Below the pieces are notes generated by a model. That model searched no databases. It had not been told where the DNA came from and worked only from the letters and a program-made list of their open reading frames with translations. Of a stretch of DNA of 31,468 bases, positions 21,999 to 30,561 are shown one piece after another. The stretch's first letter is position 1. Each line of letters starts with the position of its first letter. The DNA is from Spirochaetia bacterium (GTDB lineage Bacteria > Spirochaetota > Spirochaetia > Treponematales > Breznakiellaceae). The translations under genes were made by a program, and so were the position numbers. The stretch spans positions 1 to 31,468 of the forward strand of contig BNUU01000020.1 in NCBI GenBank assembly GCA_025997595.1. The letters run 5' to 3'.

Positions 21999-24758
<2,760 letters not shown>

Positions 24759-24777
24759 AATCGATACAATATTGCGT

Positions 24778-24828
24778 GGAGTTTCGGCTATGCCGAAACT
24801 CCTTAGCCGTTCAGCTTCGCTGAACGGC
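24778..24828. repeat. Palindromic doublet between secA and the SPOR gene
   Basis: Two adjacent perfect hairpins fill the gap between the convergent genes. The first, 24778-24802, has arms GGAGTTTCGG and CCGAAACTCC around CTATG. After TTA, the second, 24806-24828, has arms GCCGTTCAGC and GCTGAACGGC around the triloop TTC and abuts the stop codon of the SPOR gene. The first hairpin matches 23 of 25 bases of the one at 29476-29500. The second has the same size and geometry as 29503-29525 but a different sequence. Neither has a T-tract, so this is better called a dispersed palindromic repeat than an intrinsic terminator, though it may stop or protect transcripts. Confidence 0.85.
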
Positions 24829-26493
24829 CTAATTCGACTTTACAAACGCGTCCTTATACCCGTTGCTTTTGAAGCGCTGGAGTAATGCGCCGCTTTCGCC
24901 CAGGTTGACCGGGCCAACCAGCAGCCGGTATGGGGGTTTACCGGCGCTGCCGGCGGCCTGGACTGCCAGGGGATAGGTTTTGTCGATCCTGGTTAAGGCG
25001 TCTTCCACCGCCGCAGCCTGACTGAAGGCTCCAAGCTGCAAATAGTATTTGCCCCGCTCCAGTTCACCGATGAGGGGAACTGAAAATTTGGCGCCATTTT
25101 CAATTGGAACAACAAAAAGAGATTCATCCATGGAGCTCGGAAGCGTTTGGGCCGGGGCGGGCGTTTCCGGAAGGGAACTGCGGGCCGCGGGGCCATGACC
25201 GGTCTCGGTGGGCCGCGCCGGGGTCTTGTCCTTTTCGATTGGACCAATAAACAGGGATTCATCCATATAGTCCGGGGATATCCAGGCAGGGGCCGCCTGA
25301 GGTGTCTGGACCGCCTGAGGCTGGGCCGGAACGGAAGGACGCCGTTCAATGGGCCCGATAAAGGCTTCAGGAGGAATAATATAATCGGAGTAAGCTTCCG
25401 GGGGCCGTTTTTCCGCGGGGAGCAGGGCCAGATCCAGGGGAGCGCCTCCCGGGACAGGGACAGGGGCCTCGTTCCGGGTTATGGCATTCCCATTATTCGG
25501 CCGGGAACTTCGGGGCGATGGGTCGACCCCTGAGACCTCAGAATCGATATTCCTGTCGGCGGCAATTGTCGGGGACAGGGGCTTCTCGCTTTCTGTTATG
25601 CTCGGAGGAGGATCCCAGCCCAATGGTCCGATGTCTGTGGACGCAGCGGGAAGCTCCGGGCCGTCAATTACGCCGACCGAGCCGCCCTGTGCCCAAATGG
25701 GATAGAGGGTGGATTCGGGGGAATCCTCTCCGGCGGCGGCAAATCCGGGCTGAATACTTTCAGCGGGGTCATTCCAATAAGCGTCCCAATCAGCCTCAGC
25801 CCCCCTGCTTTTTGTATCCGGAGACAGACTGGGGCTGGGATAGGCATTGGGAATATCCACAATAGTGTAACTCAGGTAGGGATAATTCGAAGAGGCCGGT
25901 TTGACGGGGACCGACACGGGGGCGGCCGGGGTTGAAGAACTTGCCGGGCCCTGCTGCCCCTGGGGCAGATTCGGCAAAGGGGCTGCCGAATCCTGCCGCT
26001 GGGCCGCTTTCCCTGTGGGAAGCGCCTGCGACAGGCGTGACTCGAGGTTATCCTCCGGGGCTTGAGCCTTCGTATTATTACCCTCAGGGGTATCGGCGGC
26101 TATCATGGCCCGGGGGTCGTAATCCGGGTCCCCACTGGTGGCAAGCCCTTCGGTAAAGCGGGAGAAGGCTACGGGGTCCGAGGGCACTTTCATGCTGATT
26201 CTGCCGATGGATTTAGGCTGTAAACCGATGCTTTTGGAAGCATCCTGGGAAAGGATTGCCAGAAGACCGGGACTGTCGAGCCCGGCGGATACAATTACCC
26301 GAATGGATTTTCCTGTTTCCAGATTGGTGATGTCCACCACCGTATTCCGGGGAAAAGAATTGGTCGCCGCATAAAACCCTGTGTCGGGGAGATCTCCCCG
26401 GGCCGCCGCCGCGGCCGCCCCTTCCCACACGGAAGCATTGGTTAATACCGTCAGGGCCGCCAAAACAAGAACAAAATTCCGTATATTTTTCAT
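24829..26493 (-). CDS. RlpA-like / SPOR-domain envelope protein
   Basis: A 554-residue exported protein with signal peptide MKNIRNFVLVLAALTVLTNA. The first part (about 35-110, GFYAATNSFPRNTVVDITNLETGKSIRVIV) resembles the double-psi beta-barrel of RlpA. The middle (about 125-470) is long, proline- and serine-rich, low in complexity and carries three copies of an FxxPIE motif (FIGPIER, FIGPIEK, FVVPIEN). The end (about 478-554, GKYYLQLGAFSQAAAVEDALTRI, then YRLLVGPVNLGESGALLQRFKSNGY) is a SPOR domain, which binds septal peptidoglycan lacking stem peptides. A role in cell-wall remodelling or division is likely. Whether the RlpA-like part is catalytic is unclear. It follows 26509-27003 after 15 bases. 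Confidence 0.82.
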   Translation of the reverse strand: MKNIRNFVLVLAALTVLTNASVWEGAAAAAARGDLPDTGFYAATNSFPRNTVVDITNLETGKSIRVIVSAGLDSPGLLAILSQDASKSIGLQPKSIGRISMKVPSDPVAFSRFTEGLATSGDPDYDPRAMIAADTPEGNNTKAQAPEDNLESRLSQALPTGKAAQRQDSAAPLPNLPQGQQGPASSSTPAAPVSVPVKPASSNYPYLSYTIVDIPNAYPSPSLSPDTKSRGAEADWDAYWNDPAESIQPGFAAAGEDSPESTLYPIWAQGGSVGVIDGPELPAASTDIGPLGWDPPPSITESEKPLSPTIAADRNIDSEVSGVDPSPRSSRPNNGNAITRNEAPVPVPGGAPLDLALLPAEKRPPEAYSDYIIPPEAFIGPIERRPSVPAQPQAVQTPQAAPAWISPDYMDESLFIGPIEKDKTPARPTETGHGPAARSSLPETPAPAQTLPSSMDESLFVVPIENGAKFSVPLIGELERGKYYLQLGAFSQAAAVEDALTRIDKTYPLAVQAAGSAGKPPYRLLVGPVNLGESGALLQRFKSNGYKDAFVKSN

Positions 26494-26508
26494 CTGCCTG
26501 TCCTTTAT

Positions 26509-27003
26509 CTATCCATTGATGTGGGGTATTAATCTGCGAACCGTCTGTTTAACACGGGCAAATTCATCTTTCATATTATTATTATTCCTCCCGGCATAGC
26601 GCTCTTCATAGAGAAACTGATAGGGCCTGGTTTTATAGAGCCGCAGGGATATATCCCCGGGCTTCTGGACTTTTCCCCCTGCTACGGCGGGAAAATCCAG
26701 CAAGGCAAGGATAAAGTAATCCACCCCCCCGTCTATGGCCCCGGACAGATCCGCCATGGCCTCGTCGGGGAGTTCCTTATCTGTTTTTTGCGCCAGATGC
26801 AGGCTCGGGGAGTTACTGACGATATGGCCTTCCTCAAAAAATACATCCATAAGGCTGCTTTCCCAAAGAACGGAATATTCATTAGCCTTCCGGTCATCCC
26901 GCAGTCCCGTTTCTATTACCAGGAACGAAACCGTGGCCCCCTGAAGGGGCAAAATCATGACAGCCATAAGAAGTAACAGGGTCAAAATTCGTTTCAACGC
27001 CAT
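26509..27003 (-). CDS. Exported hypothetical protein
   Basis: A 164-residue protein with a signal peptide (MALKRILTLLLLMAVMILPL, cleaved after QGA). The mature part (VSFLVIETGLRDDRKANEYSVLWESSLMDVFFEEGHIVSNSP) reads as a small alpha/beta domain, and the region VDYFILALLDFP suggests a fold like those that compute or bind in envelope-stress proteins, but I do not recognise the family. There is no lipobox. It lies 15 bases upstream of the SPOR gene and is probably co-transcribed, so an envelope role is inferred. It is divergent from loaP with an 88-base gap. Confidence 0.7.
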   Translation of the reverse strand: MALKRILTLLLLMAVMILPLQGATVSFLVIETGLRDDRKANEYSVLWESSLMDVFFEEGHIVSNSPSLHLAQKTDKELPDEAMADLSGAIDGGVDYFILALLDFPAVAGGKVQKPGDISLRLYKTRPYQFLYEERYAGRNNNNMKDEFARVKQTVRRLIPHING

Positions 27004-27091
27004 GGTGGAAGCCCCCTCATTTCATATCGGCAGATTTCCAATGGGTAATTAATTCGATGTATAGAAAAAGCCCTTTTTTTATTGTAATTTT

Positions 27092-27640
27092 ATGGGGATG
27101 AATTATTTTGCAATACAGGTAAAAACACGGTCCGAGGAAAAGTACATCAAACTCTTCAAGGCCCTGCACCCGGAAATCAACATTCCCATTCATTTTCCCA
27201 AACGAAAAATTGATATACGCAGAAGGGGCAGGATCATTCCCTCCTCATCGGGGGTTTTCCCCGGTTATATTTTTCTGGAAGTTGAAGATGAAAAGGATAT
27301 GGTCACTCACCAGTGGGCGTTCCGCCGGACCGACGGCTTTTTCCGTTTTCTGAAGTCCAATCAGAACATAAGCCCCCTGGCGGACCGGGACCTTGAAATC
27401 GTCCTCCATTTTATCAAAAATGTGGGCCCCCTGGCGGGGAAGTCCAGGGTCTATTTTGATGAAAATTCCCGCATCGTTGTGACGGAAGGCCCCTTAATGG
27501 GGCTTGAGGGGAGCATCATAAAGGTCGATAAAAGAAAGGGGAGAGCGAAGATCAAACTGGATCTGTACGATGATTCCTTTTCCATCGACCTTGCCTTTGA
27601 GGTAATCGGGCAGGCGGCGCGGCCCGGGCCGGTATTATAA
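27092..27640 (+). CDS. loaP: LoaP-type NusG paralogue (processive antiterminator)
   Basis: A 182-residue NusG-family protein with the NGN domain (MNYFAIQVKTRSEEKYIKLF, then GVFPGYIFLEVEDEKDM) and a C-terminal KOW domain (VVTEGPLMGLEGSIIKVDKRKGRAKIKL). The FPGYIF and GPLMGLEG segments match the LoaP branch, which promotes readthrough of terminators in long polysaccharide and antibiotic operons. Housekeeping NusG differs in these places. The start may be ATG 27092 or 27098. No Shine-Dalgarno is evident. It stands at the head of a surface-sugar gene set (dehydratase, aminotransferase), the usual position for LoaP genes, and would act on the operon that follows. Confidence 0.87.
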   Translation: MGMNYFAIQVKTRSEEKYIKLFKALHPEINIPIHFPKRKIDIRRRGRIIPSSSGVFPGYIFLEVEDEKDMVTHQWAFRRTDGFFRFLKSNQNISPLADRDLEIVLHFIKNVGPLAGKSRVYFDENSRIVVTEGPLMGLEGSIIKVDKRKGRAKIKLDLYDDSFSIDLAFEVIGQAARPGPVL

Positions 27641-27686
27641 GGAAATTAGTTCCAGAACGCCAGTTCCGGATCTTCGTTAAAAAACA

Positions 27687-29225
27687 ATGACCACAAAAAA
27701 ATCGGGACGTTTGTACATTATCGGGGCGGGGTTTGCCGGGCAGACCCTGGCCAATGAGATCAAGGCCAGGGCCATCTTCGGCGAAGTGGTGGCCTTTCTG
27801 GACGACGACCCGGAAAAAATCGGCCGCCGTCTGGACGGCATCCCCGTGCTGGGACCCATCCGGGATGTTGCCAAACTTCTGCGGATGAACCCTGCGGACG
27901 AGGCGATCATCGCCATACCCAGCGCCAGCCAGGAATACCTCAAGGAACTCTACGGCATCCTCAAAAAGGCGGGTTTTGAAAAGATCCGGATTTTACCGGG
28001 AATTTCCCAGATCATCGAAGGGGACGCCCACCTGATCCAGACCCGCAGCATCGATCCTCAAGATCTTCTGGGCCGTACCCCGGTGGCCATCAATTTAAAG
28101 GAAAGCCTCCACTACCTGCGGGGCAAGCGGGTACTGGTGACCGGTGCGGGGGGCTCCATCGGCAGCGAACTTTGCCGGCAGCTCCTCTCCGGGGGGGCCT
28201 CCCGGCTCTACCTCTTTGGGCATGGGGAAAATTCAATCTACCAGATCGACAGGGAACTGCGGCTCCTGCAGGAAGCGGGGGTCGGCGAAAAGGCCACCCT
28301 GGTGCCCGTCATCGGGGACCTCAAGGACGCGGCATACATGGACTACATCATGGGCCACCTCAAGGCGGATGTGATCTTCCACACCGCCGCTTACAAGCAC
28401 GTGCCCATGATGGAGGAAAACCCCGTGGCGGCCATCGAAAACAACCTCTTCGGTACGGAAAACCTTATCCGCGCCGCCCGGAAACACGGGGTCAAGCGCT
28501 TCGTCCACATCACCACCGACAAGGCCGTGGAGCCCGTGTCGGTGTACGGGGCCTCAAAGTACCTCTGCGAGCGGCTGGTTTTGGAGGAAGCGTTAAATGC
28601 CGAGTCGGCAGCCGAAAGGGTGCCTGGCACCAGTTCCGGCGATCTCAAATTCATGGTGGTCCGCTTCGGCAATGTGCTGGGCTCCCGGGGCTCCATCGTG
28701 CCCCTCTTCCAGAAACAGATCGAGCGGGGCGGGCCGGTGACCGTCACCCATCCGGATATGCGGCGCTGGTTCATGACCATCCCGGAAGCCTGTTCCCTGG
28801 TGCTCAAGGCCGGGGGGGTCGGGGAAAACGGCAACCTCTACCTTTTGGACATGGGGGAATCTATCCGTATCCGGGACATGGCGGAGCAGATGATCCGGTT
28901 CTACGGCTTTGAGCCCGAGGAGGACATCAAAATCGAATACGTGGGGCTCCGCCCCGGCGAACGGCTGGACGAGCAGCTCTGGGGCGAAGATGAGATCCCC
29001 CGTGAAACCCCCTACAGCCGCATCCTCCGGGTGGACCGCCGTTCTCCCCCGGTAACGGACATCCGCAGCCTTTCGGAAAAGCTCAAACCCATCTGTTACT
29101 TTGATCCTCAAAAGCCTAGGATGTACCGGAACAGCGAACTTTTACGGGAACTCCTCGCCGAATCCATCCCCAGCCTTTTCGCGGCGATCTATTCGGGCGC
29201 CGTCCCGGAGCGGGTACATGGTTAA
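27687..29225 (+). CDS. UDP-N-acetylhexosamine 4,6-dehydratase-like protein (CapD/WbpM family, soluble)
   Basis: A 512-residue protein with two Rossmann domains. The first (about 8-120, LYIIGAGFAGQTLANEI, VVAFLDDDPEKIGRRLDGIPVLG) is the CoA/nucleotide-binding-like domain of the family. The second (about 145-440) is an extended SDR with VLVTGAGGSIGSELCRQLL, HTAAYKHVPMMEENP, ITTDKAVEPVSVYGASK and GLRPGERLDEQLW. Membrane helices found in WbpM/PglF are absent. Such enzymes make the UDP-4-keto-6-deoxy sugar that the next gene's aminotransferase would aminate. The SDR Tyr-Lys pair (Y287, K291) is kept, whereas many WbpM/PglF-type proteins have Met at the Tyr position. Its 3' end overlaps the aminotransferase start by 8 bases. 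Confidence 0.9.
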   Translation: MTTKKSGRLYIIGAGFAGQTLANEIKARAIFGEVVAFLDDDPEKIGRRLDGIPVLGPIRDVAKLLRMNPADEAIIAIPSASQEYLKELYGILKKAGFEKIRILPGISQIIEGDAHLIQTRSIDPQDLLGRTPVAINLKESLHYLRGKRVLVTGAGGSIGSELCRQLLSGGASRLYLFGHGENSIYQIDRELRLLQEAGVGEKATLVPVIGDLKDAAYMDYIMGHLKADVIFHTAAYKHVPMMEENPVAAIENNLFGTENLIRAARKHGVKRFVHITTDKAVEPVSVYGASKYLCERLVLEEALNAESAAERVPGTSSGDLKFMVVRFGNVLGSRGSIVPLFQKQIERGGPVTVTHPDMRRWFMTIPEACSLVLKAGGVGENGNLYLLDMGESIRIRDMAEQMIRFYGFEPEEDIKIEYVGLRPGERLDEQLWGEDEIPRETPYSRILRVDRRSPPVTDIRSLSEKLKPICYFDPQKPRMYRNSELLRELLAESIPSLFAAIYSGAVPERVHG

Positions 29226-30561
29226 AGGACATATTGAACCCATACCCTTTGCCCGGCCCTTTGTCGGGAAGGAAGAAGAAGATGCGGTGCTCCGGGTACT
29301 CCGCTCCGGCTGGCTCACCACGGGGCAGGAAACCCTGGCCTTTGAAAAAGAATTTGGGTCTTTTCTTTCAAAAACTACTTCACCGGTTACAATAAACCAT
29401 ACAGTAATGTCATATCCTGCAAAGGCTACTTTACATGGTGTGGAAAATCATACAGGAAACTCCCCCTCGACTAATGGAGTTTCGGCTACGTCGAAACTCC
29501 AAGCAACCCGGCAGAGCCGGGTTGCACCCCTCCCCTGCCTGGCGGTGAATTCGGCAACAAGCGGATTACATTTGGCTCTGGAAGCCTGCGGGATCGGCCC
29601 TGGCGATATCGTACTGGTCCCTTCCTGCACCTTTACCTCCACCGCCGAGGTGGCCCGCTACCTGGGCGCCGAGTCGGTTTTTGTGGACGTGGCCCCCGGC
29701 TCGTTTCACCTGGACCCCAAGGCCCTGGAACGTACCCTGGAAAAGCTCAGGCGGAACCGGCCCGGTAAAGCGAAAGCGGTGATGCCCGTGCACTACGGCG
29801 GCCTCCCCTGCGACATGAAGGCGATCATGGAGATCGCCCGCCATTACGGTCTCAGGGTGATCGAAGACGCGGCCCACTCCTTCCCCTCGATGGTGCCTGG
29901 CACCGGATTCGCGGGAACTATCGGCGATGCCGGGGTGTTTTCGTTCTATGCCACCAAGACCATGACCACCGGGGAAGGGGGCATGGTGGTGTGCCGGGAT
30001 TCGGAACTGGCGGCCCGGATTTCGATCATGCGCTCCCACGGCATCGACCGCAGCGTCTGGAACCGCTACACCGACACCAAAGCCTCCTGGTATTACGAGG
30101 TGGCGGCCCCCGGCTTCAAGTACAACCTCCCCGATATATTATCCGCTTTGGGCCGGGTCCAGCTTGGGCGCGCCTGGGATATGCTGCGGATGCGGGAGAC
30201 AATAGCCCGCCGTTACAACGAAGCATTCGCCGGTGACGGCCACTTCATTCTTCCCCCTTCGGGGCCGGGGAATGCCTGGCACCTCTACCCGCTGCGGCTG
30301 CGGCTTGATACCCTTTCCATAGACCGGGATGCCTTTATCCGGGAACTGCAGGAGGGGGGCATCGGGGTATCGGTGCACTTTATCCCCCTGCATACCATGC
30401 CCTATTACAAGAAAACCTATCATTTAAATGATGATGATTTCCCCGAAACCATGAAGAGCTTCCGCCATGAGATTTCCCTCCCCATCTGGCAGGGGATGAC
30501 CGGGGCCCAGGTTGAGCGGGTGATCGCTATGGTCAAAGGTATCGCAGGTAAGTATACTTAA
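29218..30561 (+). CDS. DegT/DnrJ/EryC1 sugar aminotransferase with an in-frame insertion
   Basis: A 447-residue PLP enzyme. ATG 29218 has GGAG 8 bases upstream and overlaps the preceding stop. Family marks are IPFARPFVGKEEEDAVLRVLRSGWLTTG, LAVNSATSGLHLALEACGIGPGD, VEDAAHSFPS and SFYATKTMTTGEGG, in which K247 should carry PLP. It would transfer an amino group to a UDP-4-keto sugar, as PglE or related enzymes do. Between FEKEFGSFLSK (to residue 52) and LAVNSATSG (from 108) lie about 55 residues where relatives have about four. This insertion is AT-rich in its first 100 bases and ends in the palindromic doublet at 29476-29525. The frame stays open throughout, so the protein may still work. Confidence 0.9.
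   Translation: MVKGHIEPIPFARPFVGKEEEDAVLRVLRSGWLTTGQETLAFEKEFGSFLSKTTSPVTINHTVMSYPAKATLHGVENHTGNSPSTNGVSATSKLQATRQSRVAPLPCLAVNSATSGLHLALEACGIGPGDIVLVPSCTFTSTAEVARYLGAESVFVDVAPGSFHLDPKALERTLEKLRRNRPGKAKAVMPVHYGGLPCDMKAIMEIARHYGLRVIEDAAHSFPSMVPGTGFAGTIGDAGVFSFYATKTMTTGEGGMVVCRDSELAARISIMRSHGIDRSVWNRYTDTKASWYYEVAAPGFKYNLPDILSALGRVQLGRAWDMLRMRETIARRYNEAFAGDGHFILPPSGPGNAWHLYPLRLRLDTLSIDRDAFIRELQEGGIGVSVHFIPLHTMPYYKKTYHLNDDDFPETMKSFRHEISLPIWQGMTGAQVERVIAMVKGIAGKYT
29476..29525. repeat. Palindromic doublet inside the aminotransferase gene
   Basis: The first hairpin, 29476-29500, has arms GGAGTTTCG and CGAAACTCC. It matches 23 of 25 bases of 24778-24802. After AA, the second, 29503-29525, has arms GCAACCCGGC and GCCGGGTTGC around the triloop AGA. 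The layout equals that of the copy next to secA. It is read through in frame as residues 87-103 of the aminotransferase. Confidence 0.88.

What the first reader, a model, noticed from the sequence alone, without database searches (positions are those of the whole stretch)
29370..29540. Palindromic repeat inserted in frame in a sugar aminotransferase
Residues about 53-107 have no counterpart in the DegT/DnrJ family layout, which joins FLSK-type and LAVNSATSG-type segments with about four residues. The extra DNA, about 150 bases, has roughly 40 % GC in its first 100 bases against a GC-rich flank, and then a 50-base double hairpin whose first arm recurs at 24778. The frame is kept and there are no stops. 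Rickettsia palindromic elements are known to insert in frame at surface turns of proteins. This looks like an independent case in a spirochaete, sitting at a turn before the PLP-phosphate motif.
Basis: partly seen in the sequence, partly recalled or inferred. Interest (0 to 1): 0.82.

Follow-up and report, generated by a model that had tools for sequence, protein, structure and literature searches.

The report
Hairpin DNA inserted within working genes
In a spirochaete related to termite-gut treponemes, short DNA pieces that fold into hairpins have inserted inside several protein genes without shifting the reading frame, and some of them are partly built from a reversed copy of the gene they landed in, which hints at how they arise.

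Summary
In an intact DegT/ArnB-like aminotransferase gene (29218-30561), codons about 53-107 are extra, in two layers. An AT-rich part (39 % GC) is shared with the same-genus genome G001. A double hairpin (29476-29525) is not; the net difference is exactly 19 codons. The AlphaFold2 model leaves residues 56-98 disordered in an otherwise confident fold.

It is not a one-off. The genome (G000) has 21 GGAGTT...AACTCC sites; 20 of 21 pair at least 3 bp further in. At least 5 of 21 lie in frame in genes: DegT, an FGE/PEGA protein, TsaD, a DEAH-type helicase and phosphoglycerate mutase (3 of the 21 were not read). The helicase carries one at different sites in G000 and G001, each site empty in the other. 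In 198 ortholog pairs, 13 of 75 in-gene length differences have a hairpin of 9 bp or more in the longer allele, against 9 of 1500 random coding windows.

In several in-gene copies one arm of the second hairpin is native gene sequence and the other its reversed copy, as replication template switching would make. DegT itself does not show this. It works like Rickettsia palindromic elements and intragenic REPs but fits neither definition: a new variant of a known kind.

The parts
29218..30561 (+). DegT/DnrJ/EryC1/StrS (ArnB/PseC-like) aminotransferase gene, 447 aa, intact frame
   Evidence: (PF01041, 348 bits); dN/dS against G001 0.17 over 365 codons
29371..29474 (+). AT-rich linker part, 39 % GC, older layer shared with same-genus genome G001; no further copy found in the own genome
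   Evidence: one search found only the hairpin part elsewhere
29476..29500 (+). hairpin 1, GGAG-type; copies elsewhere in the genome; absent from G001 at this site
29503..29525 (+). hairpin 2, site-specific sequence, absent from G001 at this site
24778..24802 (+). hairpin 1 of an intergenic copy of the same doublet type
   Evidence: G001 has no hairpin at the corresponding place
24806..24828 (+). hairpin 2 of the intergenic copy, different sequence from 29503-29525

Best explanation
A dispersed REP-like palindrome (GGAGTT...AACTCC, mostly 21-27 nt, variable inner stem) inserts mainly next to the 3' ends of genes and sometimes inside genes. Inside genes only in-frame copies at surface linkers survive. 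The second hairpin beside it is often made locally by replication template switching, which lays down a reversed copy of the adjacent native sequence, and template switching later keeps the arms perfect or flips the loops. In DegT the result is a 19-codon disordered extension before the PLP-binding core. Shown here: family of copies, presence/absence between two congeners, kept frame, disordered loop in the model, native arm in several copies. Inferred: that the palindrome moves as an element, and that template switching is the enzymatic route; no transposase was tied to it.
For: 21 GGAGTT..AACTCC sites in G000, 20 of 21 with at least 3 further inner pairs, and 23 of 26 in G001; bases 8 and 9 vary. 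In 1.59 Mb of G000, 35 adjacent-hairpin rows of all kinds, 15 of them GGAG-type, against 1 in a second-order Markov control. Insert present in one and absent in the other congener at DegT, helicase site 1 (G001 only), helicase site 2 (G000 only), kinase receiver (G001 only), intergenic 24778 and a site beside a tRNA. 13 of 75 in-gene length-difference blocks carry a hairpin in the longer allele against 9 of 1500 random coding windows, Fisher p 8e-13; 6 of the 13 are GGAG-type. One arm is native: helicase site 1 (identity to the empty allele 0.76, control maximum 0.65), receiver (0.78, 0.61), TsaD hairpin 2 (0.90, 0.80); by eye also helicase site 2 and phosphoglycerate mutase of G000. Loop inversion between congeners in coding hairpins of TsaD and a PcrA/UvrD-like helicase. 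dN/dS 0.06-0.28 in five genes with such inserts. Model of DegT: residues 56-98 pLDDT below 50 between H37-54 and E107-110. 7 of 9 in-gene loci seen read GGA-GTT, Gly-Val.
Against: DegT itself shows no native arm: both hairpins match the empty allele at 0.50-0.60, no better than control. Over all 13 inserts only 4 of 17 hairpins exceed the control maximum, one of them not GGAG-type. The two clean intergenic presence/absence sites show no native arm. In FGE, G001 has hairpin 2 alone, so the pair may be lost or gained stepwise. TsaD can also be read the other way, G001 being a deletion. The looser pattern read backwards also gives 12 sites in G000, whose inner pairing I could not test. No target-site duplication was seen. 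The single Y1 transposase gene is flanked by another repeat.
Confidence: 0.62

Rival explanations
1. The hairpins are not mobile. Permissive linkers simply grow by template switching on chance near-palindromes, and the GGAG consensus reflects a hotspot motif.
For: 7 of the 13 hairpin inserts are not GGAG-type; native arms and loop inversions; hairpins of other sequence at the same phosphoglycerate mutase linker in G010, G018 and G006.
Against: GGAGTT is not seen in the empty alleles of DegT or helicase site 2, while the same end sequence recurs at 21 sites and in 13 of 56 related genomes for the stricter GGAGTTTC pattern, backwards control 0 or 1 per genome.
Confidence: 0.22
2. A classical non-autonomous element (REP/REPIN-like) moved whole, both hairpins, by a transposase such as a RAYT; hairpin 2 is just variable.
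For: REP dimers inside genes are known in many bacteria (PMC3733652, sections read); a Y1 transposase gene is present in G000.
Against: Hairpin 2 differs at each site and is native on one side in several copies; the Y1 gene lies among GGGACAGAGC repeats, though one GGAG doublet lies about 900 nt downstream.
Confidence: 0.1
3. The hairpins are selected RNA structures (3' end protection or termination), and the in-gene ones are regulatory.
For: 8 of 12 intergenic copies lie within 35 nt of a stop codon by my gene calls; strong folding.
Against: In-gene copies are followed by long conserved coding sequence under purifying selection; no T-run follows the DegT doublet; no Rfam match.
Confidence: 0.06

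Closest known systems
Rickettsia palindromic elements (RPE)
   Same: Palindromic DNA inserted in frame in unrelated, probably functional genes; extra peptide at tolerated positions (passages of PMC10969869; background of PMC3733652).
   Different: RPEs are described as about 150 bp with a conserved encoded peptide; here two hairpins of 21-40 nt each, different peptide at each site, no sequence relation tested or seen.
Intragenic REPs of the GTAG and CGTC families (Di Nocera et al. 2013, PMC3733652; section 15 whole, sections 4 and 17 first parts, passages)
   Same: Short stem-loops, often dimers, mostly beside gene 3' ends, some inside genes including repair helicases; stems vary by compensatory changes.
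   Different: Those families have an unpaired GTAG or CGTC tag; here GGAG is part of the stem. No native-arm hairpin was found by the terms I searched in that text.
Replication template switching at inverted repeats (PMC8604942 and PMC8794818, abstracts and outlines only)
   Same: Makes reverse-complement copies next to the original, perfects arms, inverts loops.
   Different: Those papers treat yeast coding substitutions and RNA genes; here it builds codon-scale in-frame insertions beside a recurrent palindrome.
Coding palindromes in nematomorph mitochondria (PMC6649704, abstract and outline only)
   Same: Perfect inverted repeats inside functional coding sequence.
   Different: There both arms encode conserved protein; here they encode extra linker.

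Membership tests
Rickettsia palindromic elements | In-frame insertion in unrelated functional genes | tested here: met
   DegT, FGE/PEGA protein, TsaD, helicase, phosphoglycerate mutase in G000; dN/dS 0.06-0.28 in five genes tested, phosphoglycerate mutase not tested
Rickettsia palindromic elements | About 150 bp with a conserved encoded peptide across copies | tested here: not met
   Doublets 46-69 nt; peptides differ apart from Gly-Val in 7 of 9 loci
Rickettsia palindromic elements | Sequence homology with RPE families | not tested
   No RPE sequence was fetched
GTAG / CGTC REPs | Unpaired GTAG or CGTC tag at one end | tested here: not met
   GGAG pairs with CTCC in the stem; flanking bases vary (by reading the rows)
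GTAG / CGTC REPs | Short stem-loops, dimers, mainly intergenic near gene 3' ends | tested here: met
   15 doublets in 1.59 Mb, 12 intergenic, 8 of 12 within 35 nt of a stop codon
GTAG / CGTC REPs | Association of GTAG REPs with a transposase gene | tested here: inconclusive
   One Y1_Tnp gene; neighbours are GGGACAGAGC repeats, one GGAG doublet about 900 nt away
Template-switch mutation | New arm is reverse complement of adjacent native sequence | tested here: inconclusive
   4 of 17 hairpins in 13 inserts exceed the control maximum; not so for DegT

The most novel reading that the evidence does not exclude
A palindromic element that does not carry its second half but makes it at each landing: insertion of the GGAG hairpin is coupled to fold-back copying of the target's own flank, so every copy builds a hairpin with its host gene and leaves a flexible peptide whose sequence is dictated by that gene. 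Spirochaete protein linkers, even in universally conserved enzymes such as TsaD, would be extended by this route.
Probability: 0.3. Interest if true: 0.8.

Novelty: new variant of a known kind. Interest (0 to 1): 0.62.

Why it matters
It gives a case outside Rickettsia and outside the tagged REP families in which palindromic DNA repeatedly becomes protein, with two congeners that show inserted and empty alleles side by side. That makes two open questions testable: how such elements insert without a known transposase, and whether template switching is the source of new in-frame linkers. About one in six of the in-gene length differences of 6 aa or more between these congeners carried a hairpin (13 of 75), so the effect on protein length is not marginal in this pair.

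Tried and rejected
A single 150-base element: rejected, the AT-rich part is shared with G001 without the palindrome. A known RNA: no Rfam match at E up to 0.1 in 24600-29700. RAYT-driven movement: one Y1_Tnp gene, flanked by another repeat. First doublet scans missed wobble, overlapping and 2-nt-loop cases, so the scan was rewritten; helicase site 2 is still missed as a doublet. A BLAST indel survey was weak: 3 of 49 coding inserts with a hairpin against 9 of 980 control windows, some of which were masked N, and it lost long inserts; replaced by the ortholog survey. In one search the short alleles showed 0 of 75 hairpins, but many are too short to overlap one, so this is not a fair control; the random windows are. 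Gene calls and the GGAG grouping rule are my own scripts, the rule made after seeing the first copies. Paper searches on Treponema, termite and repetitive extragenic palindromic together found 0 papers, and four of five terms on in-frame palindromes and template switching gave 1; the library lacks most subscription papers and I did not see the original RPE papers.

Full report
What is there. The window lies in G000, a 2.26-Mb draft genome in 139 contigs, 78.7 % complete. Its nearest named relatives are termite-gut type spirochaetes: Spirochaetia bacterium PG1894_110, MS502-68, Treponema sp. bins, Breznakiella homolactica ('termite-gut' is recalled). The gene at 29218-30561 encodes a DegT/DnrJ/EryC1/StrS aminotransferase of 447 aa, nearest in structure to ArnB, with no internal stop.

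The extra segment has two layers. G001 shares the AT-rich stretch but lacks 8 + 49 nt, which hold the double hairpin. The protein difference is 19 residues. A third genome, MS502-68, has a different in-frame palindrome in the same linker, of the CCTTTGCG / CTCTGTGG type. That type is dispersed too: 9 matches in the G000 sample and 5 in the G001 sample. Other relatives have linkers of varied length there.

Structure. An AlphaFold2 model built on 27 sequences has mean pLDDT 86.9 and pTM 0.84. Residues 56-98 are below 50, between helix 37-54 and strand 107-110. The insert therefore loops out before the PLP-binding core. This is a prediction.

The repeat family. GGAGTTTC N3-25 GAAACTCC occurs in 13 of 56 genomes searched; G000 has 7 sites and a backwards control of 0. 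The looser GGAGTT N7-30 AACTCC has 21 sites in G000 and 26 in G001, with backwards controls of 12 and 15. The control sites were not listed, so their inner pairing is unknown. Of the listed forward sites, 20 of 21 and 23 of 26 pair at least three bases further in, while bases 8 and 9 vary. In 1,591,860 bases of G000, 15 GGAG-type doublets were found, 12 between genes and 3 inside genes. One Markov control of the same size had 1 doublet of any kind, against 35 rows. Of 17 exact GGAGTT..AACTCC hairpins in that sample, 4 lie in genes: DegT, helicase, FGE/PEGA protein and TsaD. A fifth in-gene copy is in phosphoglycerate mutase on contig 67. Three sites were not read. In the G001 sample (705,696 readable bases), 9 doublets were found.

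In-gene copies. TsaD: the query has residues 240-275 where the Thermotoga chain has six; NCBIfam TsaD 366.5 bits, over its cut-off. FGE/PEGA protein; G001 has hairpin 2 only, and G007, of another genus, has a GGAG hairpin plus further hairpins at the same place. Helicase (TIGR03817-like): G001 carries the doublet at site 1, where G000 is empty; G000 carries one at site 2, where G001 is empty. Hybrid kinase receiver: G001 carries it, G000 is empty. Phosphoglycerate mutase: G000 and, as a tandem pair, G026. In 7 of these 9 gene loci the hairpin is read GGA-GTT; the exceptions are TsaD and the receiver.

How common. Of 198 reciprocal best pairs between G000 and G001 (65,889 aligned residues), 75 blocks differ in length by 6 aa or more. 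In 13 of them the longer allele has a hairpin of at least 9 bp, against 9 of 1500 random coding windows of matched length (Fisher p 8e-13). Six of the 13 are GGAG-type: DegT, two helicase sites, FGE, TsaD and the receiver. The short alleles had none, but many are too short to hold one.

The clue to mechanism. In helicase site 1 and the receiver, the 3' arm of hairpin 2 is the native gene sequence, present in the empty allele, and the 5' arm is its reverse complement. Measured against other loci's empty alleles, this exceeds the control maximum for helicase site 1, the receiver, TsaD hairpin 2 and one insert that is not GGAG-type: 4 of 17 hairpins. Helicase site 2 and the G000 mutase look the same by eye. 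DegT does not show it, nor do two clean intergenic sites. Two coding hairpins have inverted loops between congeners, TsaD and a PcrA/UvrD-like helicase, the latter also with compensatory stem changes. Reverse-complement copying, arm correction and loop inversion are what template switching does according to the abstracts of PMC8794818 and PMC8604942.

Gene function. dN/dS against G001 is 0.17 (DegT), 0.06 (helicase), 0.28 (FGE), 0.20 (kinase) and 0.12 (TsaD), with no internal stop. The genes look functional, but translation of the inserts is not shown.

Place among known things. Intragenic REPs, often dimers and often in repair helicases, are known in many phyla (PMC3733652, sections read), and RPEs are the classic case (PMC10969869, passages). 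The present family lacks the unpaired tags and the conserved peptide. It is therefore a new variant of a known kind; the fold-back second hairpin is the part I did not find described, within the searches named.

Noticed in passing
L080 2944-3003, L086 9098-9158, L099 8558-8618, L104 269-328, L111 775-834, L149 9924-9980: A second doublet family: long hairpin GACTTGTTCGGCAAC.. plus GCAAAATAC..GTATTTTGC, usually followed by a T-run; 8 rows in the G000 sample, also in G001. May be terminators.
   Followed up: no
L081 1813-1908, L100 2479-2574, L112 14383-14482, L113 5220-5314: Triple-hairpin arrays with loops CATTAAAACG / CGTTTTAATG and unrelated stems; four arrays in the G000 sample.
   Followed up: no
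L038 3160-3300: MS502-68 has a different palindrome (CCGCAAAGTACGCAAAG...CCTTTGAGTCCTTTGCGG) in frame in the same DegT linker; related CTCTGTGG-type palindromes are dispersed in G000 and G001.
   Followed up: partly
L125 3257-3305 and L252 3698-3745: A coding hairpin pair near the C-terminus of a PcrA/UvrD-like helicase, kept in G000 and G001 with compensatory changes and an inverted loop.
   Followed up: partly
G000:C16:26522-26857 (L116): The only Y1_Tnp match in the genome, with GGGACAGAGC repeats around it.
   Followed up: partly
L129 12306-12359 and upstream: Triple hairpin beside what looks like a tRNA gene in G000, absent from G001 (tRNA identity recalled from sequence).
   Followed up: partly
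L278, L280, L281: Phosphoglycerate mutase linkers of G018, G006 and G010 hold other hairpins, some with a native arm by eye.
   Followed up: no
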